The translations under genes and the position numbers were made by a program. This document shows positions 14,221 through 49,251 of a DNA stretch of 58,358 nucleotides, in pieces; the first letter of the stretch is position 1; the number at the start of each line of letters is the position of its first letter. This stretch comes from Anaerolineaceae bacterium (GTDB taxonomy: Bacteria > Chloroflexota > Anaerolineae > Anaerolineales > Anaerolineaceae), in NCBI GenBank assembly GCA_002702705.1, contig PABH01000022.1, positions 1-58,358 on the forward strand. Reading direction: 5' to 3'. Under the pieces are notes generated by a model. The model saw only the letters and a list, made by a program, of their open reading frames with translations, was not told where the DNA came from and made no database searches.

Positions 14221-14362
14221 TGTGTATCCTAATGTGTTGGAACTAAGCAGAACATCGGGCCATCATTGGCACAATGGAGGGGGCAGAGGATTTGGCCGGA
14301 TTTATGTTCTTTCAGGTTCAGTAACTTTTATCAACAACTCGGACAGAACTTAGGTGACACTA

Positions 14363-15224: not shown

Positions 15225-15254
15225 TACCGTAACTGGCTATCGTTTCAACATACC

Positions 15255-15833: not shown

Positions 15834-15860
15834 GAGATGAACTCTTTACGTGAGAAATGA

Positions 15861-16670
15861 TTAAGATTGATAGCGCTCTAAAAGAAATTGGGCGTAGTCA
15901 GGCAGTGTTTCCTGGGAGAATTCCAGGCGAATGACCGAACCGGCAGCATAATAGCTGAGCAAATGTTCCTGGTGGGCTTCAATGAAAAAGCGCTCTACCC
16001 CATCCACCGGCAGAAAGAAAAGCTGCCAATCTTCACTGTGCAGTACCATATTCCCTGAATGCAGTTTCCCTTGCAGCCAGTGGGCAATTAAGGCAAACGC
16101 TGGCGTAGGCAAATAAATCGGCGCAATGTATTTATTCGCTTTACCCTGGAGCACGCCAAAGTCTCGAAGCGTAGCCTGTGCATTTCGCGCAACTCGGGTA
16201 ACAGTAGCCTCACTCCAGTCAGTGGTTGTTTTACCTTCAGATATCCACTGACGAATTGTCCGCTTAAGGAAATCAGTTTGTAGATCCCTGTAACCTGACA
16301 ATTGTCGTGGATAGATTGCTTCAATCACTAAATCGCGCAGGGTGCGATCATTTTGTGCAGAGAAAAAATACAAGAGTGGATCAAGCCATTGGCTAGGTGC
16401 ATTTTCTTGGAAAAGCTTCACCAACGTTTGCCCAATCTCCGGATCATCAAAATAACGCTGCCGAAAGATACGCAATTTGTCTTCTACACGCCTGCGTGAT
16501 GCCTTGCCAAAAATATTTTGTCTTTGTACGCGTGCCAGATTCTCTTCAACTGGTTTCTCTAAATTCCACTCACTAAGCAGCAAGCGCGTGTCGGCAATCA
16601 AGGCGCTGGCTTTAATGATCCGGCTTGTGTAAATGGGTTCATCTATTTCGGCTACGATCGTGTCAGTCAC
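15861..16670 (-). CDS. brxA: BREX BrxA (DUF1819)
   Basis: 269 residues, full length. The start is GTG, four bases after the brxE stop, with GGAG inside the end of brxE, so the two are translationally coupled. Family features: SRIIKASALIADTRLLL near the N-terminus, QNIFGKASRRRVEDKLRIFRQRY, and a winged-helix-like C-terminal half including YRDLQTDFLKRTIRQW. BrxA is a small DNA-binding protein near the 5' end of BREX operons. Confidence 0.85.
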   Translation of the reverse strand: MTDTIVAEIDEPIYTSRIIKASALIADTRLLLSEWNLEKPVEENLARVQRQNIFGKASRRRVEDKLRIFRQRYFDDPEIGQTLVKLFQENAPSQWLDPLLYFFSAQNDRTLRDLVIEAIYPRQLSGYRDLQTDFLKRTIRQWISEGKTTTDWSEATVTRVARNAQATLRDFGVLQGKANKYIAPIYLPTPAFALIAHWLQGKLHSGNMVLHSEDWQLFFLPVDGVERFFIEAHQEHLLSYYAAGSVIRLEFSQETLPDYAQFLLERYQS

Positions 16671-19753: not shown

Positions 19754-22700
19754 ATGTCCGATGAAAATTCCCCATTAAAACAAGCCTTTTCAGAATTGAC
19801 TGATGTTGTCTCTCAGACATTCAGTTTGCCTGAGCTTAAGCAGTTAGCCTCTTATCTAGAAGTTAAGCTTCAAGATTTGCCCACCAATAGCAGAATCGAA
19901 TTTGTTTTCGAATTAGTCCAGTATTTTCGGAGACGAAACATGCTAGATGAGTTCTCCCAGTGCTGTCAAAGAGAACGCCCAAACATTTCTTGGTCAGAAT
20001 ATTTTGCTAATATCCGTCCAATTTCGGCAAATACTCTCCAAGAAGCTTTAATATTGTATTTTAGTAAAGTTGAGTTTGAATCTCTCTGCCAAGATTTGGA
20101 GATTTACCATGAAAACATACGAGGAAATACCCAGCACGAAAAAAGTTATGATTTGTTGAAGCTTGTCAGTACAAGAGGTCAAACAAAGCAACTAAAAAAT
20201 ATTTGTGAGAAAAATAGGCCCAAAGTTGACTGGAACATCCTGTTTCAATCGGCTAATAAGAATCTAGCACCAGAATTACATATTCCGTTTCAAGCACAAA
20301 AACTACCAGCTAGATATGTGCCCAGAGAATCCTTAATTCAGGAAACAATTATCCAACTTGAACCCAATCAACCAGATCAAGCTCCTTTTGTTGGGCTGCT
20401 TGGACAAGGGGGAATGGGAAAATCTACGCTAGCTATCGCCATAGCTCATGATGAAACAAAAATAGCCGACTATTATCCAGATGGGATTTTATGGGCAACA
20501 CTCGGACAAACGCCGAACTTATTGGAAATATTGAACAGTTGGATGCAGGAGCTCGGGGAAACAGAAGTTGTTTCAGGAAATGAAGAAATAGTAGCCGGGC
20601 GTCTGCGTTCGTTATTAAGAAGAAAGCGAATTCTGATAATCATTGATGATGCCTGGAGAGAAGATCATGTGCGTCCTTTGCTAGTAGGAGGTAACGCTTG
20701 TGGAGTACTCCTAACTACTAGACAGAAATCCTTGGTTGAAGGGCTAAAGGCTCATCCTATCGAGATCGAGAAGATGACCCCGGAGGAAGCTCTAAAGTTA
20801 TTGTCCCGTGGCCAAAGTGAATTAAGTGAAACTGACAAATCACTCATACAACAGCTTGCTGAAGAGCTTGAACATTATCCGCTTGCACTTGATCTTGTTG
20901 GTGCACAAGCACAGAAGATGAGGAGCTGGCCTGTTTTCATAGAGCACTGGAATCGGCAAATTTTATTTGATTCTGCGGTGATCCACCGTTCATTGGAAAT
21001 TAGCTTAAATAATCTGAACGATGTGCAAAAAACTCTATATCAAAATTTGTGCATTGTCAGAAAAGGGGCTCGTTTTCCTGTGGAGATGGCCAAAAATTTA
21101 ATCGACCGATCCTACCGTGATCAGACAGAATTCATACTCCATGACTTGGCAGATCAAGCTTTGCTGGTAGTCCACCATGACGGTGACAAAGCCTTGTTTT
21201 CATTTCATTCTATTTTGCAAGATCTCATTAAAACTCGTTTGGGTGAGGAGCAGCTTGGGACAATACATGAAAAGCTTTTAGAATTGTATCAATCGAAACT
21301 AGAAGATGGACTTTGGCATACTGTGCCTGATGATGGTTACGTTCATAATCATCTATTCTGGCATTTTGAACAGCTGGGGTGGTTTCAAGAAGTACACAAC
21401 TTACTTCAAGAAGAGACTAATTCTGGACTGAATGGCTGGCATCAAGCGCGGGAAAAGCTAGGACAATTGACAGGCTATCTCGAAGACATAGAGAGGGCTT
21501 GGCAAATAGCTAGAGAAAACTTTAGACGCAGTCAGCAGGCAGTTGACCTTGGACATCAAATTCGGTATGCACTTATTATTGCAAGTCTCAACAGCTTAGC
21601 TGGAAATTTACCTCCAGAACTATTGTTTGGGCTGGTAAACGCCAGAATTTGGACAGCGGACCAGGCGTTTGCTTATGCATTTCAAAATCCAGTTCCACAA
21701 GAGCGGTCTCTTGCTTTAAAAATGCTTCTTCCGATGTTAATTGAGACAAAGGATCAAAATGACATCCTAGTGGTTTTGAAAGAGATTGAAGGGACTGAGC
21801 TAAGAAAAGAGGCGGTATGTAGTATCGCCAATTTTCTAGCTAAAAACCTATCGTTCAAACAAGTCTTGAATATACTTGGAAACTCCGATCCCGAGCGAAA
21901 ACAGGATATTTATTTTGAATTCGCCCCCATGTTTCCTGAAGCGCTTCAAGAAGCAAAGAGAATAATCGAATCTGCAACAAGTGATCAGCAAGGCGGCCTC
22001 AACATAAAGCTAATTGACTGTTTCGTAAAGAACGAATTGTACAAAGAAGCATATGATATTGTGAAGGCCGCTGGCGATGATTTGGCAATGAAGGTACAAG
22101 GCCTATTGTCTGTGTACAAATTTTTTGACGAAGACACTCAAAAGGGTATGCTTTTAGATGCTCTCTGGTCCTATGAAAAAATGATTTTCTCCCAGGAAAA
22201 TTCCTTTCTAATAGTTGAATTAGCTAAGCAAACCAAGCAGTATGAAACAATTCAGCGAGGGGTTTTTGAAATAGTCAAAAGGATGAAACACGGAAAAATT
22301 CAGGCTAGTCTATTAGCTGATATTGCTCCTTTTCTTTCAAGTAGCCTCGTTAATGAAGCTTGGGAAATTTGGAGCGATTTCGTATTTGATGCCGTTGCCA
22401 ATCAAGAAATTACCACTTCAGAAACAGAAAGATGGCTGAGAAAGTTTGCTCTATCGAACGATGTATCCGTGGCAATTGATGCATCGGAAAAAATTCGTAA
22501 CAAAGTTGAACGTGCTAATGCTTTGATTCGTTTAGCTTCATCCAGCTCGAATCCACAAGCAACTCGAGAAGAGGCGTTAAAAACAGTCCTGCAAATCTCC
22601 CAAGAAACTAAAAAAATAAATACTCTCATAGGTCTCCTCAAGGATTGGCCTCTTAAAGAACAAGAGTCAATCGTAAATATTGTAAAAGAGATTGCTATAA

Positions 22701-24358
22701 GTATCCAAGACAATTTTACTCGAGCTGAAGCATATTTTCTTTTAGCACCATTAATAAGTGATGAGGAAGAAAGGGAACTTTATATTGTTGAAGCTTTTGC
22801 CATAGTTCAAAGGGAAAGTATAGACCTTCCGACTAAAGCAGATCGATTGATTTCTTCATTGCCACGTTTTAACAGTATAGTCTCAAAACGCATAGTTCAG
22901 GAACTAGTCCTGTTAACTAAGCAAGACGTGCATCATAACACACGTAAACAGATACTTGGTCATCTTGTAAAGAAATTAGTCGAAATAGGTTGGAATAATG
23001 AAGCACTTGTGATCGCCCGCCTTATAGAAGATGACCAGGAGCAAAAAGAAACGTATTGGGCATTGGGCAGTAGGTTGGCAACACGAGGATTAGTCGGAGA
23101 GGCCATTAACATAATCTCAAAACAAGAAGTTAATGATTTATGGAAACAAGATCTAGAAAGCTATATTGATTTATTAAACACCGTAAAAAAAATTCCGGAC
23201 CAAAATCAGTCTGATTATGGTCCATTAACGAAAGTCGCCATAGTTGATCACAATGGAAGCGGTTCTGTGCAAATTGAGCTAGCCTGCTTACTTGCACACG
23301 CCGCCGGACAGAAAGCGATTGAAGGGAACGAAGATAGACTATCTATATTGAAACCATTGGCCTTTTTACTGGCTCAAGCCTCGGCTAATTCCCCTTTATA
23401 TCTTAGAGAAAAGAACAAAAATACAGCTTTGGTTATTGGTGAAAAAATCCTTCATCCACTAACAAAAGCCCTTCTGTGGGTTGACTTTGCCTATTATTTT
23501 GGAGAACATGAAAGATGTCTAAATAATGCAGTTGCAATCATCAACCAAATTTACGTGCGCAATGATCCTGAAACGCAGCAAGGCTATGCTGAAGCCTTAT
23601 CCGAGCTAGCATTAGCGATGGCTGAGCGTGGCTTCGAGTTGCAGGCGGTAGATGTAGTAAAGAGCATACCGTTTGAGTGGCAAAACTCGATACAGCTTCC
23701 AACTTTAACCAAACTTGTTATGTACTTTGATAGTGCGGAAAAAAGAAAAGAAATGATTCAGTTGATTATTGAATCGTTAAAAGGCGAAAAAATTTGGATT
23801 GAGTCGAAACAAATCGGGAAAATCCTTGTTGATTTGTCAACATATCCAGAAATCACAGCGCATATAAACGATGCTATTCAGATTGGTTTAACCATTATCA
23901 GTCCAATTCAAAAAGCTGAAGCTCTAATTGCACTAACAAGGCACGTGTCTAAAACATACCGAACGAAGGTAATCGAAGATCTTTTTTCAGAAATGTTAAC
24001 GTTACGCTCGAGCATGGAACAAGTAGAACTGCTCATACTTTTGGTTGCTGAGTTGCCGGACTCAAGAGTCCAGGATGCCATAAGGAAAGTAACGAGGATT
24101 GATGATCGGTTACCGAGAAGAAAAGCATTGACAGCTTTAGTTAACACGTTAGAAAGTTTTCCTAAGTCTAGTTTGACGAGTCTCTGGTTGAACAGCCAGC
24201 CAGAGCTTAATTTTTTGGTTTCCTCAGCCAAGAGGAACCGTCGACAAATGTTATCTGATTTAATTGGTCTTGAGCTATTGATTGCTACAATCGGAGGCAT
24301 CGAGGCAATTAAAGAAACTGCTGAAGCTATTCGCCTTGTGTGCCGTTGGTGGCCATAA
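19754..24358 (+). CDS. EAD-EAD-NB-ARC STAND NTPase with long helical sensor region
   Basis: 1534 residues, no membrane segment. There are two N-terminal EAD copies: about 7-80 (FSLPELKQLASYLEVKLQDLP... RERPNISW) and about 95-170 (FSKVEFESLCQDLEIYHENI... KNRPKVDW). An NB-ARC-type STAND ATPase follows, with Walker A GQGGMGKS (217-224), Walker B ILIIIDDAW (D298-D299), sensor GVLLTTR and the HYPLALDLVG (GLPL-like) motif. After a winged-helix region, about 1000 residues of helical-repeat superstructure (HEAT/TPR-like, irregular) presumably sense the trigger. The plan is that of NLR-like immune switches: ligand binding, oligomerisation, then effector recruitment by EAD contacts. It has no effector domain of its own, so it must act through another EAD protein. 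Transcribed alone, convergent with the WD40 STAND gene. Confidence 0.85.
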   Translation: MSDENSPLKQAFSELTDVVSQTFSLPELKQLASYLEVKLQDLPTNSRIEFVFELVQYFRRRNMLDEFSQCCQRERPNISWSEYFANIRPISANTLQEALILYFSKVEFESLCQDLEIYHENIRGNTQHEKSYDLLKLVSTRGQTKQLKNICEKNRPKVDWNILFQSANKNLAPELHIPFQAQKLPARYVPRESLIQETIIQLEPNQPDQAPFVGLLGQGGMGKSTLAIAIAHDETKIADYYPDGILWATLGQTPNLLEILNSWMQELGETEVVSGNEEIVAGRLRSLLRRKRILIIIDDAWREDHVRPLLVGGNACGVLLTTRQKSLVEGLKAHPIEIEKMTPEEALKLLSRGQSELSETDKSLIQQLAEELEHYPLALDLVGAQAQKMRSWPVFIEHWNRQILFDSAVIHRSLEISLNNLNDVQKTLYQNLCIVRKGARFPVEMAKNLIDRSYRDQTEFILHDLADQALLVVHHDGDKALFSFHSILQDLIKTRLGEEQLGTIHEKLLELYQSKLEDGLWHTVPDDGYVHNHLFWHFEQLGWFQEVHNLLQEETNSGLNGWHQAREKLGQLTGYLEDIERAWQIARENFRRSQQAVDLGHQIRYALIIASLNSLAGNLPPELLFGLVNARIWTADQAFAYAFQNPVPQERSLALKMLLPMLIETKDQNDILVVLKEIEGTELRKEAVCSIANFLAKNLSFKQVLNILGNSDPERKQDIYFEFAPMFPEALQEAKRIIESATSDQQGGLNIKLIDCFVKNELYKEAYDIVKAAGDDLAMKVQGLLSVYKFFDEDTQKGMLLDALWSYEKMIFSQENSFLIVELAKQTKQYETIQRGVFEIVKRMKHGKIQASLLADIAPFLSSSLVNEAWEIWSDFVFDAVANQEITTSETERWLRKFALSNDVSVAIDASEKIRNKVERANALIRLASSSSNPQATREEALKTVLQISQETKKINTLIGLLKDWPLKEQESIVNIVKEIAISIQDNFTRAEAYFLLAPLISDEEERELYIVEAFAIVQRESIDLPTKADRLISSLPRFNSIVSKRIVQELVLLTKQDVHHNTRKQILGHLVKKLVEIGWNNEALVIARLIEDDQEQKETYWALGSRLATRGLVGEAINIISKQEVNDLWKQDLESYIDLLNTVKKIPDQNQSDYGPLTKVAIVDHNGSGSVQIELACLLAHAAGQKAIEGNEDRLSILKPLAFLLAQASANSPLYLREKNKNTALVIGEKILHPLTKALLWVDFAYYFGEHERCLNNAVAIINQIYVRNDPETQQGYAEALSELALAMAERGFELQAVDVVKSIPFEWQNSIQLPTLTKLVMYFDSAEKRKEMIQLIIESLKGEKIWIESKQIGKILVDLSTYPEITAHINDAIQIGLTIISPIQKAEALIALTRHVSKTYRTKVIEDLFSEMLTLRSSMEQVELLILLVAELPDSRVQDAIRKVTRIDDRLPRRKALTALVNTLESFPKSSLTSLWLNSQPELNFLVSSAKRNRRQMLSDLIGLELLIATIGGIEAIKETAEAIRLVCRWWP

Positions 24359-24418: not shown

Positions 24419-27400
24419 TTATGGCTGTTGATCTTCAGGTATCGAGGGATGAACAGGTAGATAGTTGCATGTCTGGCGATATGGTTCGCTGGGAAGGTAA
24501 AATTGCCATTCGTCCCAGGAAAGGTTGCGAGTCGCGCGTTTGCACGCTTCAATCAGCCGATCTTCCTGATCAATGAAATATCGGATAATGGAACCACCTG
24601 CCGTTGTAACCATTATTTGAGATCCATCAAGATTCCATTTCGCTGTAACAACACGAGTTCCATCCCCTTCTGGTTCTGCCAGCATTATACTAGGGTCAGA
24701 ATCCCATATGCGGACTCCACCATCTAATTCAATTACTACTGCACGGGACTCGTACTGGCTCCACTGGTTGGATTGACCGGAATGCTGCCAAGGATAAGAT
24801 ATCCCCAAATTATATTCTGAGGCTCGTACAGTAACTGCGCCTTCGCCACTTATTACAAGAGGGAATGGTTCATCAGGCCCCAGGCCCCATTGTACGTACT
24901 CTGCCCAATCTTCGTAGTTTAGAGTGTGCAAAAATTCACCTGTCCGAGCATCCCATACACGAGCAGGCCCTCTGGTATCATAGGTAACAACTAATGACTC
25001 ATCTTGATTCCATTGGGCATCCCAAACTTCACTCTCGTGTGCCACTGTGAACAGCAGCACACCAGTTTTGGCATCCCACACTTTTGTGGTTCCGTCTCTA
25101 CTAGCTGTCATTATATGGGACTCATCGTTGTTCCACTTAGCAATCCAGGCCCAATTGTCATGGGTGAGTTGAAATATCATTTCTCCCGTTTGGGCACTCC
25201 AAACCTTAACAGTTCCATCTTTACTCATTGTCATTATTTGGGACTCATCCCGATTCCATTTTGCGCTCCAGACAACATCGTTATGCGCTAACATGAACAA
25301 CTGCTCCCCAGTTCGAGAATCCCAAATCCTTGCTGTGCCATCATCACTATAGCTTAAAATCTGGGATTCATTCCGATTCCAATTTGCATCACCAACCCAA
25401 TCCTCGTGAGTAAGGGTTGGTATTAAATCGTGGGGTAATGCATTCCAGATCTGGATTTTCCCATTGTGATGATAGGTAAGAATACTGGTTTCATCTTTAT
25501 TCCACGTTGCGCCTTTAATAGCACTGGGCCCTTGATTTTCATCCTCATCAGATAAGGCTAATATCAGAGTACCTGATTGGGCATCCCAAACCCGGGCATT
25601 ACCATCGCTACCATAACCGAGAATACTTGTTTCATCTTCATTCCACTGAACCCCCCAAACCCGATAGTCCAGTGTTAAAAGCAACTCGCCGGTCTCAGCA
25701 TCCCATATTCGAATAGCATCACTATTGGTGAGAATACGCGATTCATCTTTGTTCCATTCCGCGCTGGTAACAGAACCACTATGAGTAAATGATTGTAGTA
25801 CATCCCCAGTTTGGGCGTTCCATACTTTTACTATCTGATCTCTACTGCTAGTTAGTATGCGCGATTCATCTTTATTCCATATGGCATTTGTAACGGCATC
25901 ATCGTGAGAAAGGGTAAATAATAACTCTCCGGTTTGAGCATCCCAAACTTTGGCGGCACCATCAACACTAATAGTAAGAATTCGAGATTCGTCCTCATTC
26001 CAGATGGCACTTGTAACGCTTTCATCATGTGAAAGGATAAGAATTAATTCCCCAGATTCAGCATCCCAAACTTTCGCGGTGCTATCAACACTATTAGTGA
26101 GAATTTGAGATTCATCTCCATTCCATGTGGCATTTTGAACGCTATTGTCATGTGAAAGGATAAGAATTAATTCCCCAGATTCAGCATCCCAAACTTTCGC
26201 GGTGCCATCAACACTATTGGTAAGAATTCGAGATTCGTTCTCGTTCCACATAGCATTTGTAACGGTACTCATGTGAGAAAGGGTAAGAAATAATTCTCCA
26301 GTATGAGCATTCCATACTTTCGCGGTTCCATCAACACTATTGGTAAGAATTCGAGATTGGTCCTCGTTCCATTTGGCATCATAAACCTGAGCTTCGTGAG
26401 GCAATTCCAGCACCAAGTTTCCAGTCTGGGAATCCCATATTCGGGCTGTTCCGTCCAAACCAGCAGATAGAATAAGTGTTTCCTCCTGATTCCACTTTGC
26501 AACGTTTATAAACCCTTCAACCCTGAGAGCAAGATGAGGACGGTTAACTAACCTTGAACTGTCATAGATTGCTTGAAATGCTTGTGGGCTTACACTGCGT
26601 CGATCAGCTTCGATCGAGAGCAAATGTGCCAGCATGGTATCTTCATGCAAAATAGCATCTGAAAAGGCAGCCAAGCTCAGGGAAAGGGATTCCTGAGTTT
26701 CACGAGCTAAGCGCTGGTTAGTGTTATCTAAAATATAGACAGCAACGCCTAATCCGATGGCTAGCAATCCCAAAATAATAACGCCTGCCATTAAGCGCTT
26801 AGCCGCTCGCTGATTTTCCATAGCTCGTTGCGCTTCAATCGCTTGGCGAGCTTCAGCTTCTTCAGTCAGCTTTTGAGCGACTGCCAGTTCTTGTTTGAGT
26901 CGCGCATCTGCTTTTTCCTGTTCTACTCTTTGCTGTTCAAGACTAGTTTGAATATAGGCCTTTTCTGGCTGACTTAAATCATAAGCGGAATCAGTAAGCC
27001 ATTGTTCGGATTCAGCAAGGGCTGCGCCGCGTAGCAAAGCATTAGGATCCTGATCTGTCTTTTCCCACTGGGTGCGGTATACGCGTAATCGTTCTTGCCA
27101 GAGGCGAAATGCACGATCGGCCTGCATCCATGTCTGAAGTTGTTCCCATCGTCTTGTTAACGCTTCATGCGCTAGCTCAACCGTTTCGCGCCCAGCTTCA
27201 TCGCGCCCAGTCACTACAAGTCTTTTATCGGCCAAAATTAGTATGGTTTCCCAGACATTTTTCTGTAAATCATCTCGGTTAGCGATGCGCCTTGTGTCTT
27301 CTGTTCCGATGCCTGGCTGCACCAACTGGGTAAAGATATACCGTGCCTGTTTTTTTTGCACATCGTTTAGTTTTTGGTAAATCTCATCTGCATATTGAGC

Positions 27401-28576
27401 CAATGCGCCATCAGCTTTACCAATTATTTCGTAGGCTTCATGAGTGAGTTGGGCCACCTCTTGTCTTTGCCAAAGCTGTGTGAGAGCAAACTGAATAAGG
27501 GGCAAGTTGCCAGGCTCATGACCAACATCATCAAGAATTCGATCAACTAACCCTGTTTCAAAGTAGATGCCAACTTGTGCAGCGGGTTGAGTAATGGCCT
27601 GGTACAGTTCATTTCGGTCCATTGGCCCCAAGATAATTAAGCTTCCTTGAAGTGTGTCAGCAAAAGGTCGGTAGGCTAACGCTTGTCCCAGAAAATCAGC
27701 TCGCAGGGCGAGAAGAACACGCCAGGGAGGAGAATAAGGCAATGACTCTTCAGTAATTATGGTTGTCAATAATAAGTCGAGGAAAAGCTGTTGTGTGTTG
27801 CCGCTAGAACTTAATGTGAATATTTCCTCAAATTGATCAATAAATAACAACGGTAGCGCATCATGTTTTTCTTGAATTCGGGAAAGAACATTTCTTAATG
27901 AGACAGTTCCTTCTTTTAGAGCTTGTGTTAAGCGCTCGATTTCTATCAGACGCGCTGTTTCACTTAGATCAGTTTCTAGGTGAAGAATTAGAGAGGCTGC
28001 CAGAGCTCTAAAGGGATATTTGCCGGGCCTAAAGGATACTACGTACCATTTGGCTTGTTTTCGCAATTCTGGAACGAGTCCAGCACATACAATAGAGGAT
28101 TTTCCACCACCTGAGGAACTTACTAAAACAGTGAAAACCTGCTCTTCTATAGCGGCAAGAAGTTTTACTGTGTAAGCAGTACGGCCGTAAAAAAAGCTAG
28201 CGTCTTCTTCTCGGAAAGGGGACAAGCCTCGATACGGCTGAGGTATGTCTGTTGGAATTTTGGGTTGCCAGGAAACGTGGGGGCGCTCGGTTTGAAGTTG
28301 GTGTAAGAGGTGTGAATAAAGGCCTTGTTTTTCGGCATATTCAATGAGAGAGGCGATTTTGTTAAGTTTGTTTTTCCCATCCAGGTGCTCATAGTTGATC
28401 TGTAAGTCAAAGCACAGCATCTGGAGTTCGCTCTCTTTGAAATAGCGATCAATATTTTGTCTAAGCTCATGTCGGTGCGGAATCATTCTTATATCTATAC
28501 TGGATTCATCACGATTCATTTTGATAGAAAAATTAGTATCTATGATCTGATGACGTAGAAGACTTTTTGAAAACAA
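24419..28576 (-). CDS. EAD-nSTAND1-transmembrane-WD40 NTPase
   Basis: 1385 residues. An EAD is at about 33-108 (FKESELQMLCFDLQINYEHL... ERPHVSW). An nSTAND1 ATPase begins PYRGLSPFREEDASFFYGR, with P-loop SSSGGGKSS near 155 and Walker B LPLLFIDQFEEIF. A coiled stretch rich in Q, A and E is followed by a transmembrane helix (AGVIILGLLAIGLGVAVYIL, about 600). The C-terminus holds about sixteen WD40-like repeats forming one or two propellers. The WD repeats would be outside the membrane or tethered to it and sense the trigger, with the ATPase and EAD inside. Several repeats are nearly identical, a sign of recent amplification. Several upstream in-frame ATGs exist; the exact start is uncertain by up to about 30 codons. 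Confidence 0.88.
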   Translation of the reverse strand: MFSKSLLRHQIIDTNFSIKMNRDESSIDIRMIPHRHELRQNIDRYFKESELQMLCFDLQINYEHLDGKNKLNKIASLIEYAEKQGLYSHLLHQLQTERPHVSWQPKIPTDIPQPYRGLSPFREEDASFFYGRTAYTVKLLAAIEEQVFTVLVSSSGGGKSSIVCAGLVPELRKQAKWYVVSFRPGKYPFRALAASLILHLETDLSETARLIEIERLTQALKEGTVSLRNVLSRIQEKHDALPLLFIDQFEEIFTLSSSGNTQQLFLDLLLTTIITEESLPYSPPWRVLLALRADFLGQALAYRPFADTLQGSLIILGPMDRNELYQAITQPAAQVGIYFETGLVDRILDDVGHEPGNLPLIQFALTQLWQRQEVAQLTHEAYEIIGKADGALAQYADEIYQKLNDVQKKQARYIFTQLVQPGIGTEDTRRIANRDDLQKNVWETILILADKRLVVTGRDEAGRETVELAHEALTRRWEQLQTWMQADRAFRLWQERLRVYRTQWEKTDQDPNALLRGAALAESEQWLTDSAYDLSQPEKAYIQTSLEQQRVEQEKADARLKQELAVAQKLTEEAEARQAIEAQRAMENQRAAKRLMAGVIILGLLAIGLGVAVYILDNTNQRLARETQESLSLSLAAFSDAILHEDTMLAHLLSIEADRRSVSPQAFQAIYDSSRLVNRPHLALRVEGFINVAKWNQEETLILSAGLDGTARIWDSQTGNLVLELPHEAQVYDAKWNEDQSRILTNSVDGTAKVWNAHTGELFLTLSHMSTVTNAMWNENESRILTNSVDGTAKVWDAESGELILILSHDNSVQNATWNGDESQILTNSVDSTAKVWDAESGELILILSHDESVTSAIWNEDESRILTISVDGAAKVWDAQTGELLFTLSHDDAVTNAIWNKDESRILTSSRDQIVKVWNAQTGDVLQSFTHSGSVTSAEWNKDESRILTNSDAIRIWDAETGELLLTLDYRVWGVQWNEDETSILGYGSDGNARVWDAQSGTLILALSDEDENQGPSAIKGATWNKDETSILTYHHNGKIQIWNALPHDLIPTLTHEDWVGDANWNRNESQILSYSDDGTARIWDSRTGEQLFMLAHNDVVWSAKWNRDESQIMTMSKDGTVKVWSAQTGEMIFQLTHDNWAWIAKWNNDESHIMTASRDGTTKVWDAKTGVLLFTVAHESEVWDAQWNQDESLVVTYDTRGPARVWDARTGEFLHTLNYEDWAEYVQWGLGPDEPFPLVISGEGAVTVRASEYNLGISYPWQHSGQSNQWSQYESRAVVIELDGGVRIWDSDPSIMLAEPEGDGTRVVTAKWNLDGSQIMVTTAGGSIIRYFIDQEDRLIEACKRATRNLSWDEWQFYLPSEPYRQTCNYLPVHPSIPEDQQP
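24600..26510 (-). repeat. Array of about sixteen WD40 repeats, several near-identical
   Basis: Repeat unit is 42-43 codons with the core AxWNxDESxILTxSxDGTAKVWDAxTGELLxTLSHDxxV. Units between about 25885 and 26385 are the most alike; two neighbours share KVWDAESGELILILSHD exactly. Units towards the C-terminus are more diverged. This is within the coding sequence. Confidence 0.8.
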
Positions 28577-28837: not shown

Positions 28838-31800
28838 CTACCTCACCAAATCAGGTAAGTCAAGGCTGACTTGCCAAACCACAGTATCTCCGAATCCACC
28901 ATCGTATCGAACGAAAAGACGGCCACCAACGAAAGGCGTACAATCTTCCATCGCGGGATTTTCAAAATTGCAGTTGTCCAGATCGCCTGGAACGGTGATG
29001 TTATAAGCGGGAGAGACCCATTGAGTTGGACAGCTACCAGGTAAACAGCGAACGCCCGAAGCGATACCATCTGGATCATCCTGGCCTCTGACGCCAAAAG
29101 CCATAGCCCAATCTGTTTCATCGGGATTATAACCAAGTGGATCACTATCATCGGGGGTAAAGGTCACGGAGTCAAAGTAGAAAATAATAGGGGGTTCAGC
29201 ACCGGAATCGGAATCAAAAAGGCTTACACTAATAGTTTGTCCTATCATTTCTGGTCCAACATCGATCAATGGAATATCTACTGGTCTATCAATATTCGAG
29301 TTCATCGCTATAGTACCCAGGCCATAGACAGTTACGCCTTCAGAAGAATGAGAGCCAGGATTGTTGAGAACATGCAAATTTCGGGAATTGACTTCACTTG
29401 GCACTGAGTTGATATGGGTAGGGGGTCCCGCCCAAATTCCAAATCCATTTTCCGAAGCACCGCTCATGGACTGCACTTCAAGGTAGATATATCGTTCACC
29501 GGTAACTTGATCCACCATTATATTAGGAAGATCGGTCGCTAGGTTAACTTCAAAACTATCTATGGTTTGGGCAATGGCTGGTACAGGAACACCGGGATCA
29601 TCCATCGTGGAGAAGGGAACGGTAGCACCAGGGGAGACCCAGCGCAAATCAGTAAGATGATTGCCGGGGGCTCCGCCGTCACGCAGATCGCCAGTTTGTC
29701 CAAAATAAGTAACTAAAGGAACTTTAATGATGGTGCCATCAGAATTTTGGGCGAAGTAAGAGAGACTGTAACGGGTTCGTGTATTTAATTCTTCCGTATA
29801 GGAATCCGGTACCTCACAGGTACCTCCTGAAGCAGTAGGTGGAAGTCGATTTTCGTCAATGCGAACAAACCAATATGGATTGATTTTATCCAGACTAATA
29901 TTAGAGGTTGGCGTGTCAGTTAAAGCCAGTTCGTCGGTGCTTAATAAACAGGGCTGAGTGCGGTTTGAGCTTTCGCTATTAACACCACAGGTTTTTGAGG
30001 TAGTAGAGGCAATACCATTACTAACGGCAATGTTAGAGCGGGCAATTGAGACTGTGTTGATATCGGCATTGATAGAATCCGGGTCGAAAAGCTCGACACG
30101 AACTACATCGTGTCGATAGTTGGCTGGAATATAGATACGGTAGGTGTAAGTATAAGGACCGGTAGCCCAATCGCTGACCAAGGAGGAAAATGAGTCACCT
30201 GAAAGAGTGCAACTGTTCGGGCCTGAAATGCTCAAGTTTGTAGTACCAATAATGCCTTTTTCCGCATTATAACCAGTATATATGCCACCAGTCGTGGGAC
30301 GATTTTGAGGGGCTTGATCGAAATAATAATTTGTTAAAAGTTCAACCAATCCACTATCAAATAAATTTGGAAAAGTTTCTTCATTATTGCTTTTATTAAT
30401 CAATACATTTGTTAACATCAATTCACTTTGCAAAAAAGTCCGGACCAAATTAAGCCATTGGCTGCGGCTAGTGAATTGTGGTGATATTGGCTGCAAAACC
30501 GGAGAAACTGTTTGAATCGGTGGGGATATTGGAGTAATAGTTGGAGTTGGTGTTCGAGTGAGTTGAGATGTTGATGTCACTAATTGCGTGTTTGTGACTT
30601 TGATCCCGGGTGTTGGCGTATCTATCCCAGAAGTCGAAAGGGGAGATTGAGAATCATCAATTTCAAGATTTTCTAATTCAGAAGTACCTATAGCTGTTGG
30701 AGCTGTTGGAACCAAGGTCTCTGTGCTGGTGATTTCTACACCTTCTTCCAATTCTACACCCAGCAAAACAAAAGACATCACTCGATCCAAATCAGTCAAG
30801 GCGTCTGTATAATTCGATGAATCTTCTAAGGTTGAAGTATTACCAATTTCAGTGAAAACACGCGCGCGTTCGAAAAGCGTAGCTGGATTGTTAGGATTAA
30901 TTGATATCGCATTGTTATATGCTGTCAAGGCATTGTCGTAATCTCCTTCCTGAACCAACCGGCGACCATTAAGCCATTGCTCAATTTCCTGCTTAACTAT
31001 CAATGCATCTTGATCTTTAAAAAACTCCAACTCGTTTGCCATATGGGTCAGCAGAGGAGTTGTGCTACTGGTATAGTTTGCATCCACCAAAGAAATATAG
31101 ATGATCTGAATTAGACGGAGCATATTTCCAGGGTTTTCAACAAAATGGTGATGATCATAAATGGCCTTTTGCTGCTCCCAGTTTTCGAGACCAAAAAACA
31201 GTTCTCGAACACTTTGTTCGGACGGGGAAGTATTTCCCAGTAAGGGTAAAGGTTGAATTGATGCCAATTCAGCTAATGCCTGTGCCCTCTCTAGGTTATT
31301 AGTCGCTTGTAAAAAGTTAAGTTCATAATTCCTTTGTTGAGTCGGCAAGAGAACAGAATTATAGAGTAAGGCAAGGATTGCTAATAGAGCAACTAGCCCT
31401 CCTGCAACGCCAATCACAACCCCCCAGTTTGTTTCAGTCTCTTGCTGAATCCACTTTAGGTCAAATACATTTCGATAGATTTGATTCCTGACTTGCAAAT
31501 TACCATCTTGAACAGTAACTAAACCCGACAACAACAATTGGTTCTGTTCTACCGAGGATTTATTTTCTTTTACATTTATCCCCTTATACACATTCTTATA
31601 CAGTCGTAACAATCGTCGTTTATTCGAACTTTTGCTAATACCATTTTGGATAAAACGAATATTGCCTTCGTTTCTTGACTCTTCTGATAAGAATGTCTGA
31701 TATACAAGATCATCAATTGCCTCATCATGCCAATCTTTCTCTGGCTCTTCGCTAATCAGTAGGCAAAGCCTTTGTGTAAGATAGGGATGTCCCGAAGTCC

Positions 31801-32518
31801 AATAAAAGACCCGTTCCAATATGACCGTGGCGTGTTCAGGATGATCTATTTCTAGCCCTTTTAACAATGGTGCAGCATCGCTAGCTTCAAATTCGCTAAG
31901 ATTTATCTTGCTACCGATATTAAATGGTGTTCGAACTGGATCATTTATTAACTCTGACGGGGATGCCACCCCCAATAAAACAAAAGTAAGACGCGTTAGC
32001 GCCTCCTCCTGTGAACGAGCGTTATAAAGAGCCCGAATAGTAGCAAAAAAATTATCGCGAAACGGCATCGTTAACATCGTATCGATTTCGTCAAAGAAAA
32101 TAACAATACGACCTTCTACTTGTGCCAAAAGATAATCTAATATAAAGCGACGAAATCGTAATGAGAAACTTAAATTCTTTGTTCTCTCTAACCAGCGCTC
32201 CATATCGACATCAACGCGAAAAGCCCTTTGGAGTTCATCAAGTAAAGTGAAATAGAAGGTTTTTTCATCTATTTCTCCACTACCTTGAAGATCTATTGAA
32301 AGCGCTTCAATGTCTGCATTTTTCAGGCGAACTAGAGTGCGAGCAACAAGGCTGGATTTGCCCATTTGTCGCGGTGTAAGAACATAGCATAATTCTCCCG
32401 CGGTAATACGCGTATATAACTCATCATCTGTGGGACGTTTCACATAAGAAGGTGCATTCGGACTTAACGTACCACCTGCAACAAAGTATTTGGGCCTTTC
32501 ATGAGTATGATTCGTCAT
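28838..32518 (-). CDS. Membrane AAA_35 NTPase with TPR and large surface beta domain
   Basis: 1226 residues. AAA-like (AAA_35) ATPase at about 1-350, with P-loop TPRQMGKSS (48-56) and Walker B RIVIFFDEID. A transmembrane helix (VVIGVAGGLVALLAILALLY, about 370) follows. Then come a helical/TPR segment (EGDYDNALTAYNNAISINPNN), a Ser/Thr/Pro-rich linker, and about 540 residues of beta-rich sequence. That last part includes YTYTYRIYIPANYRHDVVRVELFDPDSIN and ends RLFVRYDGGFGDTVVWQV. It resembles extracellular TadG-like pilus-associated domains of Chloroflexota. The expected topology is ATPase inside, beta domain outside: a surface sensor joined to a cytoplasmic switch. Its start overlaps the stop of the EAD-TIR gene by 4 bp (ATGA), so the two are translationally coupled and likely one system. 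Confidence 0.75.
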   Translation of the reverse strand: MTNHTHERPKYFVAGGTLSPNAPSYVKRPTDDELYTRITAGELCYVLTPRQMGKSSLVARTLVRLKNADIEALSIDLQGSGEIDEKTFYFTLLDELQRAFRVDVDMERWLERTKNLSFSLRFRRFILDYLLAQVEGRIVIFFDEIDTMLTMPFRDNFFATIRALYNARSQEEALTRLTFVLLGVASPSELINDPVRTPFNIGSKINLSEFEASDAAPLLKGLEIDHPEHATVILERVFYWTSGHPYLTQRLCLLISEEPEKDWHDEAIDDLVYQTFLSEESRNEGNIRFIQNGISKSSNKRRLLRLYKNVYKGINVKENKSSVEQNQLLLSGLVTVQDGNLQVRNQIYRNVFDLKWIQQETETNWGVVIGVAGGLVALLAILALLYNSVLLPTQQRNYELNFLQATNNLERAQALAELASIQPLPLLGNTSPSEQSVRELFFGLENWEQQKAIYDHHHFVENPGNMLRLIQIIYISLVDANYTSSTTPLLTHMANELEFFKDQDALIVKQEIEQWLNGRRLVQEGDYDNALTAYNNAISINPNNPATLFERARVFTEIGNTSTLEDSSNYTDALTDLDRVMSFVLLGVELEEGVEITSTETLVPTAPTAIGTSELENLEIDDSQSPLSTSGIDTPTPGIKVTNTQLVTSTSQLTRTPTPTITPISPPIQTVSPVLQPISPQFTSRSQWLNLVRTFLQSELMLTNVLINKSNNEETFPNLFDSGLVELLTNYYFDQAPQNRPTTGGIYTGYNAEKGIIGTTNLSISGPNSCTLSGDSFSSLVSDWATGPYTYTYRIYIPANYRHDVVRVELFDPDSINADINTVSIARSNIAVSNGIASTTSKTCGVNSESSNRTQPCLLSTDELALTDTPTSNISLDKINPYWFVRIDENRLPPTASGGTCEVPDSYTEELNTRTRYSLSYFAQNSDGTIIKVPLVTYFGQTGDLRDGGAPGNHLTDLRWVSPGATVPFSTMDDPGVPVPAIAQTIDSFEVNLATDLPNIMVDQVTGERYIYLEVQSMSGASENGFGIWAGPPTHINSVPSEVNSRNLHVLNNPGSHSSEGVTVYGLGTIAMNSNIDRPVDIPLIDVGPEMIGQTISVSLFDSDSGAEPPIIFYFDSVTFTPDDSDPLGYNPDETDWAMAFGVRGQDDPDGIASGVRCLPGSCPTQWVSPAYNITVPGDLDNCNFENPAMEDCTPFVGGRLFVRYDGGFGDTVVWQVSLDLPDLVR

Positions 32519-34299
32519 CCTAATTTATGTCCAAAATACTGCGCATACAAACCACATCGGCAGGTAACAATATCACCATTTTGAATGACCAACCCAGCTT
32601 TTTGTAGGCGAAAAATAGCATCTTCGTTACTGCATCTTCCTGTTGAAATTATTTGGAGAAGAGCTTTTTGTAGTATTGATTGGGTGCGTATTCCCCAGTT
32701 AAGACGGCGTAGATGGTCGCCAAAGGGTCCGTTATCCGATGTAGCCTTCTTTTCAATTTCTTGCCAGCTTAATTGATTCCTTGCCAATAAATAGAGGAGT
32801 TTTCTGGTTAGATAGGGCTGCCCATTGAGCAAATCGAAAGCCTGAGAGCTCTCAGCTTCATTTAACGGTGATCCATGCTGATAGTTGAGAAGTTCAAAAT
32901 CTGCCTGACTAAAATCAGTTAAATTTAGTTTTAGTCCAACGTTAAAAGGGGAATTGATATTATCGATCAAAATGTATGGCTCAGTTGAAATAACTAAGAC
33001 AATATTTAATTTTTCCCATTCACTTAACATGGCTCGTCGATTATGCCATGAACGCAATAAACCAAAAAAATGCTGGTAAAAGCGCGTTTCAAGCAGTGCA
33101 TCCGCTTCATCAAATGCCAAAATTATAGGTTCCTCAAAACGCGATAAAATATGATCTTCAATTAAGTTTGTCAGGTTCTTTTGGGCAACTAAACGATCAT
33201 TCCAGCTCTTTTCTATCTGTAAGCCATCAATTCTCAATTCATCAACAAGCAGTTCAGCAAGACTGCGTAAGAAAGTGTCCATCTCTGATTTTTCATCTAG
33301 TCCCAAACTCTGTCCATCTAAAAAGATCACCTGTGCACCTTTTTCCCGAGCATAATGAAGTCCACGCATTAACAAAGATGTTTTTCCAGTTTGCCGAGGA
33401 GCACGAATAGTAATCGTTGTTCCTCTTCGTACTATTTCTTGTCTGAGTTTGTTATCTTCCTCACGCTCGACATAAAATTTATCACTTAGACTGAGTGCCC
33501 CCCCAGGGATAGAGAGATGTTTTATCAGACGGGGATCAAATTCTGGAGATGGTGGACTAATAAGCTCGTTTTTAGAAAGAAGCCTACCATCTACAGATAA
33601 AATAGTGGCAGTATTCGGTATTTGTGAAAAGGGATCAGATTTTTCGGGCAGTTTTTCGTTGATGGCGAGTAGAATTGAATTCACAATCTTCTGGTTATCA
33701 TTCGCAGAATGCCAGTAAATGTATTGCTTTGGGTTTAAGAATGCGGAAATTCCATAAGGTAACATCCCATTAAAGGCGACACGAATAGGGAGAATCTGTG
33801 GTTTTCCTTGGACAGTATGATATTCTTTTGCTCGGTAGATTTCCGAGCGAACCATCTCTGAATCGATAGATTCTGTAGATAACAACACAACCAAAAAATC
33901 GGCTGCTTTAATTTCAGCATCGATACGATCCAGCCATTCTTCTCCTGCACGCAACCCCTGATCATAAAAGACATCATGTCCTTTGTCATTTAGAGAGTCA
34001 TATAATATTTTTGCTAGGTTTGCATCGTTAAGGGTGTTTTGTTTATATGCAATAAATAGTTTGACTTGGTAAGTCCAAACAACTTTGGGTCGAAATTTTT
34101 GACAAATTTGTGTTAGCTGAGAAATTCGGTCATCAGAATTCATACGATTTACTAGTGAAACAATTTTGTCAATTTTTGCCCTGCCAGGAATGTTGTCAAA
34201 ATCTACGCCCAAATCAAAAACTAGGTGCCTGAATTCTTCATAATCAAAGTGATCATTGATCTTTTCCTTTAACTGAATCAAATAATTTGTTTTTGTCAT
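32515..34299 (-). CDS. EAD-TIR-AAA_35 protein
   Basis: 594 residues. EAD at about 5-75 (FDYEEFRHLVFDLGVDFDNI... KFRPKVVW). TIR domain at about 78-215 starts VKLFIAYKQND-like, with DVFYDQGLRAGEEW and E153 in SIDSEMVRSEI at the position of the NADase glutamate. The AAA_35 ATPase spans about 265-594, with P-loop APRQTGKTS near 300 and Walker B IILAFDEADALL. TIR domains of this kind degrade NAD+ when oligomerised, so the protein is a plausible self-contained abortive-infection switch. It is translationally coupled to the membrane AAA_35 protein, which may be its sensor or partner; both ATPases are of the same family, so a mixed oligomer is possible. Confidence 0.85.
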   Translation of the reverse strand: MTKTNYLIQLKEKINDHFDYEEFRHLVFDLGVDFDNIPGRAKIDKIVSLVNRMNSDDRISQLTQICQKFRPKVVWTYQVKLFIAYKQNTLNDANLAKILYDSLNDKGHDVFYDQGLRAGEEWLDRIDAEIKAADFLVVLLSTESIDSEMVRSEIYRAKEYHTVQGKPQILPIRVAFNGMLPYGISAFLNPKQYIYWHSANDNQKIVNSILLAINEKLPEKSDPFSQIPNTATILSVDGRLLSKNELISPPSPEFDPRLIKHLSIPGGALSLSDKFYVEREEDNKLRQEIVRRGTTITIRAPRQTGKTSLLMRGLHYAREKGAQVIFLDGQSLGLDEKSEMDTFLRSLAELLVDELRIDGLQIEKSWNDRLVAQKNLTNLIEDHILSRFEEPIILAFDEADALLETRFYQHFFGLLRSWHNRRAMLSEWEKLNIVLVISTEPYILIDNINSPFNVGLKLNLTDFSQADFELLNYQHGSPLNEAESSQAFDLLNGQPYLTRKLLYLLARNQLSWQEIEKKATSDNGPFGDHLRRLNWGIRTQSILQKALLQIISTGRCSNEDAIFRLQKAGLVIQNGDIVTCRCGLYAQYFGHKLG

Positions 34300-42775: not shown

Positions 42776-44338
42776 ATGCCTATTACCCCCAATGCGCTAT
42801 TTAAAGCAGACCGCTTAGAATTCTTGGAGCGTCTGGAGCCAAATAGTGTTCAGTTTGTGTATGTAGACCCTCCCTGGTTCACTTCATCGGAAGCCGCAGA
42901 TTTTGATCCTATCGAAAAGGCTCCGGAAGAGACACAAAAATATTTCACATTCATCTCCAAGACATTACAGCAATGCTACCGTGTCCTGGATAAAGAGGGG
43001 GCGTTGCTCATACAGTACGAACAACGCTTCGGTAGCAACCTTCGTCTCATACTGGATCAAATTTTTGGCAGAGATTGTTTTTTAGAGCAATACATTTGGC
43101 CTTGGCGAAGCGTTTCCCCTCTGGGCAGCCATAAGAAGTACGATATCCTGCTGCTTTATAGCAAGGCAAACAGTTACAAAATTCCACTACGTTCCTTGAC
43201 AAAAGAAGAAATCAAACGACGGTATCCGCAAAAAGATAACCGTGGCAGATACCATTTGATGCATTTATTTATCCCCAACAAAAACGATAGAGGCCGACCA
43301 TCTTTTAATTACGAGTGGAATGGATTCAGACCGCCAGAGAAAAGTCATTGGCGATTCTCCCAAGAAAGACTTGAACAGCTTGCCGAAGAAGGGCGGATAA
43401 CTCTCGAAAATAACAAACAACCAAGAATGAAAGTGTACTACAAGGAAGACTTTCGAGTTCCCATCGACTTGATATGGGATCACATTCCTAACTTCCATCC
43501 GACAACAGAGTGGAAATATGGCGAAAAATTTTATGCTTCGCAAAGACCGCTCGCTCTATTAGAGCAAATTCTCACGCTTGGCCCTCAGCCGGGAGATATT
43601 ATTCTCGACCCGTTTTGCGGTTCCGGTACCTCGCTACATGCAGCAGAAAAATTGGGGTTGCGTTGGCTAGGATGCGATCTGGATCACAGTGCAGTTAACA
43701 CTACGATTAGCAGACTACAAGAGAACTTTGGCCTCCAATCAAACGAAGATTATGTAGTAGGAGACAGTAAATATCTCAAGGGACATTCCGTCCTTCATAA
43801 TGAATACAGGGAACTGCTCACGGGACTGGAGGATGATCTATCATACATGATTGCTAAAGGTGAATCACAGTATGTTGAGTTCAAAGAAACTGCCAAATGG
43901 AATCGAAAATATAAGCGTGTAGACAAGGGAATAATAGAAAAGATTTTAAAAGATGCAGTCGCATTTATGAATTCCAGAAAAGGGGGAGACATCCTGATTG
44001 GTGTCATGGATGATGGAACTGTGGTTGGACTGACAGAAGATTACCAAGCTGTAAACAAACAAAAGAACAATAAAGATGGGTATAGCCTATTTCTTACCGA
44101 AAAGTTGCGGAACGCGTTAGGTGAAAGTGCAGTGTCTTTGTGCGAAATTACCTTTCCAACATATTTGGGAACTGAACTATGTCGAATTAAAGTTTCGCCG
44201 GCAGACAGACCAGTCTTCTATAACAAAGAATTCTATTTGCGTGATGGGAGTTCTTCGCCTCCCCTTAACACTCAAGAGGCTGTTGAGTATGCTCAGCGTC
44301 ATTGGACTCAACGTATTGAATGCGCACTCAGGCGCTAA
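42776..44338 (+). CDS. DNA methyltransferase (beta class) fused to AlbA_2/Schlafen-type domain
   Basis: 520 residues. Residues 1-335 are a beta-class amino-methyltransferase: catalytic motif DPPW (31-34) precedes AdoMet motif I ILDPFCGSGTSLHAAE (about 275-290), with a target-recognition region between. About 361-480 is an AlbA_2 (Schlafen-family) module: GESQYVEFKETAKWN, then EKILKDAVAFMNSRKGGDILIGV and DDGTVVGLTEDY. This module usually sits on predicted nucleic-acid-binding or cleaving proteins. The fusion in one frame, without a separate restriction enzyme nearby, suggests an orphan methyltransferase or a self-contained modification-restriction protein. The exact specificity is unknown. RBS TTAGGAT is weak. 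Confidence 0.85.
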   Translation: MPITPNALFKADRLEFLERLEPNSVQFVYVDPPWFTSSEAADFDPIEKAPEETQKYFTFISKTLQQCYRVLDKEGALLIQYEQRFGSNLRLILDQIFGRDCFLEQYIWPWRSVSPLGSHKKYDILLLYSKANSYKIPLRSLTKEEIKRRYPQKDNRGRYHLMHLFIPNKNDRGRPSFNYEWNGFRPPEKSHWRFSQERLEQLAEEGRITLENNKQPRMKVYYKEDFRVPIDLIWDHIPNFHPTTEWKYGEKFYASQRPLALLEQILTLGPQPGDIILDPFCGSGTSLHAAEKLGLRWLGCDLDHSAVNTTISRLQENFGLQSNEDYVVGDSKYLKGHSVLHNEYRELLTGLEDDLSYMIAKGESQYVEFKETAKWNRKYKRVDKGIIEKILKDAVAFMNSRKGGDILIGVMDDGTVVGLTEDYQAVNKQKNNKDGYSLFLTEKLRNALGESAVSLCEITFPTYLGTELCRIKVSPADRPVFYNKEFYLRDGSSSPPLNTQEAVEYAQRHWTQRIECALRR

Positions 44339-48956: not shown

Positions 48957-48972
48957 ACCCTCGGCATTGTTT

Positions 48973-49242: not shown

Positions 49243-49251
49243 GTAGCATTC

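What the first reader, a model, noticed from the sequence alone, without database searches (positions are those of the whole stretch)
28838..34299. EAD-TIR-AAA_35 coupled to a membrane AAA_35 with surface TadG-like domain
The 4-bp overlap forces near-equal synthesis. One protein has the NAD-degrading TIR candidate; the other crosses the membrane and carries a large extracellular beta domain. Together they look like a transmembrane immune receptor: outside sensing, shared AAA_35 oligomerisation, inside TIR output. I do not know a described bacterial system with this split.
Basis: inference. Interest (0 to 1): 0.68.

Follow-up and report, generated by a model that had tools for sequence, protein, structure and literature searches.

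The report
Split membrane TIR receptor gene pair
Two overlapping genes appear to encode one bacterial receptor split into an outward-facing membrane sensor and an inside executor that can carry a TIR domain like those of plant and animal immunity, and the same split pair turns up across very different bacteria.

Summary
In detail: 32515-34299(-) encodes EAD7-TIR-AAA_35 (A), 28838-32518(-) encodes AAA_35-TM-stalk-ectodomain (B), overlapping by ATGA. 'TadG-like' fails: the distal ectodomain matched nothing searched and could not be modelled.

The pair recurs. A and B are reciprocally monophyletic AAA_35 subfamilies. In 80 named-genome loci fetched with B alone, 70 of 82 B genes have an A directly beside them, over about 12 phylum-level groups (read from record titles). 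A carries swappable outputs (TIR, CHAT, kinase, HTH); B carries swappable tips (WD40, PD40, solute-binding protein, cohesin, CHASE2, amidase) and in 76 of 94 cases a predicted TM helix near the ATPase end. The A model resembles TIR-NLR, CED-4 and archaeal STAND ATPase structures.

Best reading: a 'split NLR', membrane sensor B and executor A joined through two STAND ATPases. Complex formation, NAD loss and phage defence are inferred. This copy lies in a defence island holding all six EAD7 matches of its genome, but pairs elsewhere showed no excess of PADLOC neighbours. Conceptual precedents exist (nSTAND2 gene pair; MNS/Npun2340-2341 STAND family); my searches found no description of this pair.

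The parts
32515..34299 (-). Gene A, 594 aa: EAD7-TIR-AAA_35, predicted executor subunit
34087..34266 (-). EAD7 adaptor domain (aa 12-71)
33697..34056 (-). TIR domain (aa 82-201); conserved Glu E153 at 33841-33843
32530..33507 (-). A-type AAA_35 STAND-like ATPase plus winged helix (aa 265-590); Walker A RAPRQTGKTS from aa 299, Walker B ILAFDEAD from aa 393
32515..32518 (-). ATGA stop/start overlap between A and B
28838..32518 (-). Gene B, 1226 aa: AAA_35-TM-stalk-ectodomain, predicted sensor subunit
31463..32473 (-). B-type AAA_35 ATPase (aa 16-352); Walker A LTPRQMGKSS from aa 47, Walker B IFFDEID from aa 140
31355..31423 (-). Single predicted transmembrane helix (about aa 366-388)
30758..31354 (-). 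Helical/TPR stalk (about aa 389-587), similar in B proteins of other Anaerolineae; modelled at block pLDDT 66-96
30485..30754 (-). P/T-rich linker, unstructured in the model (about aa 589-678)
28841..30313 (-). Distal orphan ectodomain (about aa 736-1226), few Lys, 8 Cys, fold unknown

Best explanation
A and B form one split STAND (NLR-like) receptor. B is anchored by one TM helix: its ATPase and winged helix face the cytoplasm; a helical stalk, linker and variable tip face outside. A is soluble: an output domain (here TIR, with an EAD7 adaptor) on the partner ATPase. Ligand or damage sensed by the B tip would change the nucleotide state of B, nucleate an A-B (possibly B-B-A) oligomer, and cluster the A TIR domains so that they cleave NAD+ or make a nucleotide signal. 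In the window copy EAD7 probably adds homotypic coupling to the EAD7-STAND and EAD7-SIR2 proteins of the same island. Shown by sequence: domains, overlap, conservation, separate subfamilies, intact Walker motifs, TIR Glu, exchangeable ends. Inferred: complex formation, direction of signalling, NAD loss, defence role.
For: 70 of 82 B genes in 80 loci have an adjacent same-strand A (69 A-then-B, 1 B-then-A). From the A side in plasmids: 29 records match, 25 listed; of the 25, 9 show A directly before B (two of them near-identical Tolypothrix plasmids), 3 B before A (one judged by spacing only), 2 divergent neighbours, 1 holds both 43 kb apart, 10 not resolved from the listings; one of those 10, H26, proved to be an A-B pair. 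A (74) and B (94) domains are reciprocally monophyletic, split support 1.0. Their trees match, Mantel r 0.887 over 73 pairs against a permutation maximum of 0.227; 12 comparisons of paralogous pairs within single genomes give r 0.90. 54 of 78 A-then-B pairs overlap, -4 in 28, -8 in 21. Walker A/B intact in A (71 of 73, 74 of 75) and B (93 of 94 each); TIR Glu in 48 of 50. Predicted TM near the AAA_35 end in 76 of 94 B, K+R 3.01 before v 2.07 after it, p 2e-5. Tips: SBP_bac_3, cohesin, annotated amidase and CHASE2. A model pLDDT 83; best folds TIR-NLR RPP1 (Foldseek; domains match but their arrangement differs, rmsd about 20), archaeal 2qen/2fna (Z about 21), CED-4, TIR-NLR WRR4A. One B gene holds two B-type AAA_35 in tandem.
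Against: No physical evidence of an A-B complex. By hydropathy 18 of 94 B lack a TM near the ATPase, one of them with a CHAT tip, so a membrane receptor is not universal. 12 of 82 B genes have no adjacent A; seven of these have 1.8 kb or more upstream. WD40 and FGE tips are also known from cytosolic STAND proteins (recalled). Flanking charges of the window TM are neutral. TIR is common in the set picked by similarity to the window B (47 of 59) but present in only 2 of the 11 A genes from the whole-genome surveys (window and L091); other outputs are CHAT, HTH, kinase or unrecognised. The pair is patchy: of 150 relatives only two genomes hold strong B matches. Flanking ORFs of 21 Chloroflexota pair loci (110 of 140) matched 48 PADLOC families against 57 for 110 of 202 control ORFs at 1e-15: no enrichment. 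Co-inheritance also follows species relatedness.
Confidence: 0.62

Rival explanations
1. The pair is a general transmembrane signalling device (environment, cell wall, nutrients) of which TIR is one output among many; it is not chiefly anti-phage.
For: Outputs include HTH_26, Pkinase with GerE, and BTAD/Trans_reg_C, with TIR in only 2 of 11 A genes of the whole-genome surveys; tips include SBP_bac_3, annotated CHASE2 and amidase; no PADLOC enrichment near 21 Chloroflexota pairs.
Against: TIR is the commonest output in the set fetched by similarity to the window B, 47 of 59; the window copy sits between BREX, SIR2-STAND and EAD genes.
Confidence: 0.4
2. B is a guard or antitoxin-like inhibitor: it holds the A TIR off at the membrane, and loss or damage of B releases it.
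For: Frequent pairing with overlapping genes and A usually first; the B-type ATPase is intact.
Against: Large diverse ligand-binding-type tips are not needed by a plain antitoxin; 12 of 82 B genes occur without an adjacent A.
Confidence: 0.2
3. In this window A is driven mainly by EAD7 partners (NB-ARC and nSTAND1 proteins) and B is a secondary membrane anchor.
For: All six EAD7 matches of the 5.9-Mb genome lie in this 58-kb contig, in proteins that also carry NB-ARC, nSTAND1 or SIR2, or no other recognised domain.
Against: EAD7 appears in only 1 of 59 other A proteins scanned, each of which came from a locus with an adjacent B; EAD7 copies here are only 23-33 percent identical to that of A.
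Confidence: 0.2
4. Artefact: adjacency by shared ancestry only, with no joint function.
For: A and B are paralogues, and co-inheritance partly follows species descent.
Against: Pairing spans about 12 phylum-level groups with overlapping genes and within-genome paralogous pairs co-diverge.
Confidence: 0.04

Closest known systems
nSTAND2 two-gene system (Kaur et al. 2021, PMC8195603, section 15 read)
   Same: A two-gene operon whose two products each have a STAND NTPase core; hetero-multimer proposed there
   Different: There one partner is inactive and carries mostly GT4 or HEPN effectors, and the NTPases are nearest CR-ATPases/Dap3; here both Walker sets are intact, outputs are TIR, CHAT, kinase or HTH, and B usually has a predicted TM and ectodomain. 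Relatedness to nSTAND2 was not tested by profile.
MNS-clade STAND NTPases, Npun2340/2341 family (Leipe et al. 2004, recalled; named in PMC8195603 section 7, read)
   Same: The A model is nearest archaeal 2qen and SSO1545 (2fna); AAA_35 may well be this family, whose name itself suggests two neighbouring Nostoc genes (inference)
   Different: The one mention read places it in EAD/effector-STAND-FGS proteins; no membrane/executor pair is described in the passages read
TIR-NLR resistosomes (RPP1, WRR4A) and paired plant NLRs
   Same: TIR plus STAND ATPase plus winged helix in A; a sensor/executor division of labour (plant pairs recalled and seen in listing)
   Different: Here sensor and executor are separate chains without a recognised LRR, and the sensor is predicted to span the membrane
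Toll-like receptors (recalled)
   Same: Outside ectodomain, one TM, TIR inside
   Different: TIR is on another chain and two ATPases lie between
Bacterial single-chain STAND defence (Avs, bNACHT; recalled)
   Same: Effector, STAND and sensor logic; Avs4 is among the Foldseek matches
   Different: Effector and sensor split over two genes, sensor predicted in the membrane; no PADLOC hit for B

Membership tests
AAA_35 (PF14516) | Score above gathering cut-off 27 | tested here: met
   A 285 bits, B 107 bits
STAND NTPases | P-loop ATPase plus winged helix fold, Walker A and B | tested here: met
   Fold for A only: Z 20.9 (2qen), 20.6 (2fna), 16.4-16.8 (CED-4, WRR4A); Walker motifs in A and B. B was not modelled over its ATPase.
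STAND NTPases | Nucleotide-driven oligomerisation | not testable with these tools
   needs protein
TIR NADases | TIR fold with catalytic Glu | tested here: met
   E153 (catalytic role recalled from other TIRs); SARM1 and SPARTA TIR matches
TIR NADases | NAD+ cleavage | not testable with these tools
   needs assay
EAD-coupled conflict systems | EAD copies on several neighbouring effector or STAND genes | tested here: met
   six EAD7, all in this contig
nSTAND2 two-gene system | One NTPase of the pair has eroded motifs | tested here: not met
   both intact in nearly all A and B
nSTAND2 two-gene system | NTPase belongs to the nSTAND2 family | not tested
   no model at hand
Toll-like receptor | Ectodomain, TM and TIR in one chain | tested here: not met
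Single-chain Avs/bNACHT | Effector, STAND and sensor in one chain | tested here: not met
   split over two genes
Thoeris | ThsB TIR with ThsA partner | tested here: inconclusive
   weak ThsB matches for A; neighbouring SIR2 genes are SIR2-nSTAND1 and EAD7-SIR2, not compared with ThsA
TadG-like pilus protein | Recognisable TadG sequence or fold | tested here: inconclusive
   no Pfam, PDB or genome match, no usable model

The most novel reading that the evidence does not exclude
A widespread, ancient class of bacterial 'split NLR' membrane receptors: an outward-looking STAND sensor (B) and an inside STAND executor (A), with freely exchanged ectodomains and outputs, that assemble into one hetero-oligomeric wheel at the membrane and do in bacteria, when the output is TIR, what Toll-like receptors do in animals.
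Probability: 0.35. Interest if true: 0.86.

Novelty: new variant of a known kind. Interest (0 to 1): 0.69.

Why it matters
It would add a cell-surface, two-subunit form to the known bacterial STAND/TIR repertoire, which as described (recalled) is mostly intracellular and single-chain. It gives a modular system whose sensor and output ends can be compared across many phyla, and makes the question of how TIR and STAND signalling came to be linked to the cell surface directly testable. It also gives a testable role to AAA_35, whose accession PF14516 was found in no paper of the library.

Tried and rejected
TadG-like ectodomain: no support. Structure of stalk plus ectodomain: stalk fine, tip not modelled, so no fold search of the tip. 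Viral reservoir: one pair in IMG/VR (L183), no phage-record match for A. PADLOC names for the pair: only weak matches for A, none for B. Defence-neighbour enrichment: none; one control set from genomes of the same phylum, ORFs of 150-900 aa only, random 110 of 140 and 110 of 202, and only the first 25 families of each tally are shown. BFVD fold search: the named matches are mostly AAA-type ATPases and clamp loaders. My CHAT and kinase counts were over-inclusive and are not used; Pfam counts are. The gap statistic picks the start nearest zero and so leans to overlap; its 78 pairs include L121, the same contig as L060. The genome surveys scored at most 13 or 5 candidates a genome. TM calls rest on a Kyte-Doolittle window (scale recalled), not on a trained predictor. 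Rows dropped: L121 and L063 as duplicates (TM counts); L024 and L029 also; truncated domains; A N-termini under 40 aa and L180. A reciprocal Arg/Gln difference between A and B was noted but not interpreted. Papers: search listings only (one search matched 225 papers, the 20 listed being on unrelated subjects, so AAA_35 by name is not excluded; one search lists one cyanobacterial genome paper, not read); PMC8195603 passages plus sections 7 and 15; PMC7159879 and PMC10907252 passages only; Leipe 2004 not held, recalled.
Full report
What is there. On the minus strand, gene A (32515-34299, 594 aa) and gene B (28838-32518, 1226 aa) overlap by ATGA. Pfam gives A as EAD7 12-71, TIR_2 82-201 and AAA_35 265-590 (285 bits), and B as AAA_35 16-352 (107 bits) plus TPR matches. 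B has one hydrophobic helix at about 366-388, then a helical stalk, a P/T-rich linker and a distal region; residues 690-1226 have 5 lysines and 8 cysteines in 537, against 2 cysteines in the first 365 residues. E153 of A is the Glu of SEMVRSE. These are the only two AAA_35 matches over the cut-off in the 5.9-Mb genome.

What is not there. Residues 691-1226 of B have no Pfam match at E up to 10, no PDB sequence match at E up to 10 and nothing better than E 0.15 in 60 other genomes; AlphaFold gave the part from about 736 on pLDDT of about 25-42. The TadG label is unsupported and the tip is an orphan in what was searched.

Conservation of the pair. A PF14516 search of 151 genomes (own plus 150 relatives; at most 13 candidates scored a genome) and of 400 genomes of the phylum (at most 5) gave 11 distinct A-type matches above 250 bits, the window's included. 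Ten have a B-type ORF directly beside them; the eleventh (G095:C286) has one about 10 kb away. The pair is thus patchy: besides the own genome, strong A matches occur in 2 of 150 relatives and 4 more genomes of the phylum draw. That the phylum is Chloroflexota is inferred from named records that agree with these contigs (G109:C278 and L121; G427 and Candidatus Chlorohelix allophototropha). A scan of named genomes with an alignment of 11 B domains kept the best 80 of 549 relatives. Those 80 loci hold 82 B genes: 69 have A upstream, 1 has A downstream and 12 have none adjacent, of which four start within 1 kb of a contig end and a fifth follows another B. By my reading of the record titles the 69 loci with a neighbouring A are 18 Chloroflexota, 21 cyanobacteria, 14 Acidobacteriota, 4 gammaproteobacteria, 3 Aminicenantes, 2 Myxococcota, one each of Nitrospira, KSB1, Verrucomicrobia, Calditrichia, Planctomycetota and Chthonomonas, and one unplaced. 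Plasmids add further pairs. Of 29 records with an A match 25 are listed: 9 have A directly before B (two are near-identical Tolypothrix plasmids), 3 B before A (one judged by spacing only), 2 are divergent neighbours, 1 holds both 43 kb apart, and 10 could not be resolved from the listings. One of those ten, an Abditibacteriota plasmid, proved on inspection to hold an A-B pair.

Two subfamilies that travel together. On a joint tree 74 A and 94 B domains separate cleanly (support 1.0). Distances on the A tree and the B tree correlate at 0.887 over 73 pairs (2000 permutations, maximum 0.227). Species descent contributes to this, but 12 comparisons between paralogous pairs inside single genomes also give 0.90. 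54 of 78 A-then-B pairs overlap, by 4 bases in 28 and 8 in 21, with the start nearest zero taken. Walker A is intact in 71 of 73 A and 93 of 94 B, Walker B in 74 of 75 A and 93 of 94 B.

Exchangeable ends. Of 59 A N-termini scanned, 47 match TIR_2, 14 CHAT, 8 Pkinase, 2 BTAD, and single ones HTH_26, EAD2, EAD7 and others. This set was picked by similarity to the window B. The ten A proteins of the whole-genome surveys other than the window's show CHAT-TIR, CHAT, EAD11-CHAT, HTH_26 (two), Pkinase with a GerE C-terminus (two), and three without a recognised N-terminal domain, so TIR is in 2 of those 11. In the TIR domains that my own profile found, the Glu is kept in 48 of 50. Of 82 B C-termini, 46 match WD40 and 42 PD40, overlapping sets. 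Others carry SBP_bac_3 (L103), cohesin (L131) and FGE-sulfatase (L105, L169, L115), an annotated amidase and an annotated CHASE2. In the CHASE2 case one predicted TM follows AAA_35 and three more lie near the C-terminus; the amidase-annotated B also has one TM after AAA_35, and the Abditibacteriota B has none there.

Topology. By hydropathy 76 of 94 B have a TM within -15 to +130 residues of the AAA_35 end, with K+R 3.01 before and 2.07 after (44 more before, 14 equal, 18 more after; p 2e-5). The window B has 1 and 1, so its own charges say nothing. The claim that its tip is outside rests on the single TM, the need of the ATPase for the cytosol, and relatives with typically extracytoplasmic tips. 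18 of 94 lack such a TM, so a soluble form probably exists too; L091 with a CHAT tip is one.

Fold and likely mechanism. The A model (pLDDT 83) has plant TIR-NLR RPP1 as best Foldseek match (E 6e-11, rmsd about 21, which I read as a different domain arrangement). By VIA-align it is nearest archaeal 2qen (Z 20.9, rmsd 4.1, 302 aligned) and 2fna (Z 20.6), then CED-4 (16.4-16.8) and TIR-NLR WRR4A (16.8), with its TIR matching SPARTA and SARM1 TIRs at about 14-17. So A looks like an NLR that has its output and ATPase but no sensor, and B like one that has ATPase and sensor but no output. One B gene (L106) holds two B-type ATPases in tandem (508 and 511 bits), which hints at B-B contacts. The best reading is a split STAND receptor in which the outside tip controls assembly of an A-B oligomer and thus TIR clustering. 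Assembly, nucleotide control and NAD loss are inferred.

Context. All six EAD7 matches of the genome (97 percent complete) lie in this 58-kb contig; if placed at random, five further copies falling there would have a probability near 1e-10. They sit on A, on an nSTAND1-WD40 protein (24419-28576), twice on an NB-ARC protein (19754-24358), on a SIR2 protein (51688-53151) and on a 271-aa protein (2830-3645). BREX genes (BrxL, PglZ, BrxA), two EAD1-trypsin proteins and SIR2-nSTAND1 proteins complete what looks like a defence island. Against a general defence reading, flanks of 21 Chloroflexota pair loci show no more PADLOC families than control stretches (48 v 57 at 1e-15; 110 of 140 and 110 of 202 ORFs).

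Known or new. PF14516 is named in no paper of the library. The main texts of two conflict-system papers do not mention AAA_35. PMC8195603 does describe an nSTAND2 two-gene operon with one inactive NTPase (section 15) and names an MNS-clade Npun2340/2341 family in STAND-FGS proteins (section 7). AAA_35 may be that family, which I could not check because Leipe 2004 is not held. Searches for TIR with transmembrane, WD40, STAND and paired or split NLR terms showed no description of this pair in their listings. The parts are of known kind; the membrane-sensor plus executor split, and its breadth, appear undescribed in what could be searched. Hence 'new variant of a known kind'.

Noticed in passing
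window 3430-3612, 19799-20221, 28280-28465, 34087-34266, 52597-52779: All six EAD7 matches of the 5.9-Mb genome lie in this one contig, on STAND, TIR, SIR2 and a short protein: an EAD7-linked conflict network.
   Followed up: partly
window 6248-16670: BREX genes: BrxL 6248-8272, PglZ 8282-10885, an MmeI-type methyltransferase match below its cut-off at 12769-14220, BrxA 15861-16670.
   Followed up: no
window 42776-44338: DNA methylase fused to a Schlafen AlbA_2 domain in one ORF.
   Followed up: no
window 45198-53151: SIR2-nSTAND1-FGE gene, a second SIR2-nSTAND1 split over two ORFs with a further FGE fragment, and EAD7-SIR2.
   Followed up: no
window 4479-5555 and 54197-55258: Two EAD1-trypsin genes near the two ends of the island.
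   Followed up: no
L106 6825-10823: A B gene with two complete B-type AAA_35 domains in tandem, 508 and 511 bits.
   Followed up: partly
   Followed up: partly
A and B ATPase alignment: A mostly has Gln before SPFNVG (65 of 74) where B mostly has Arg (76 of 94), and A has a conserved Arg after PYLT (92 percent) where B has it in 0 percent; the B consensus there is Gln.
   Followed up: no
L211: Nostoc plasmid pair next to a recombinase and a CU044_2847 family gene, B annotated as amidase.
   Followed up: no
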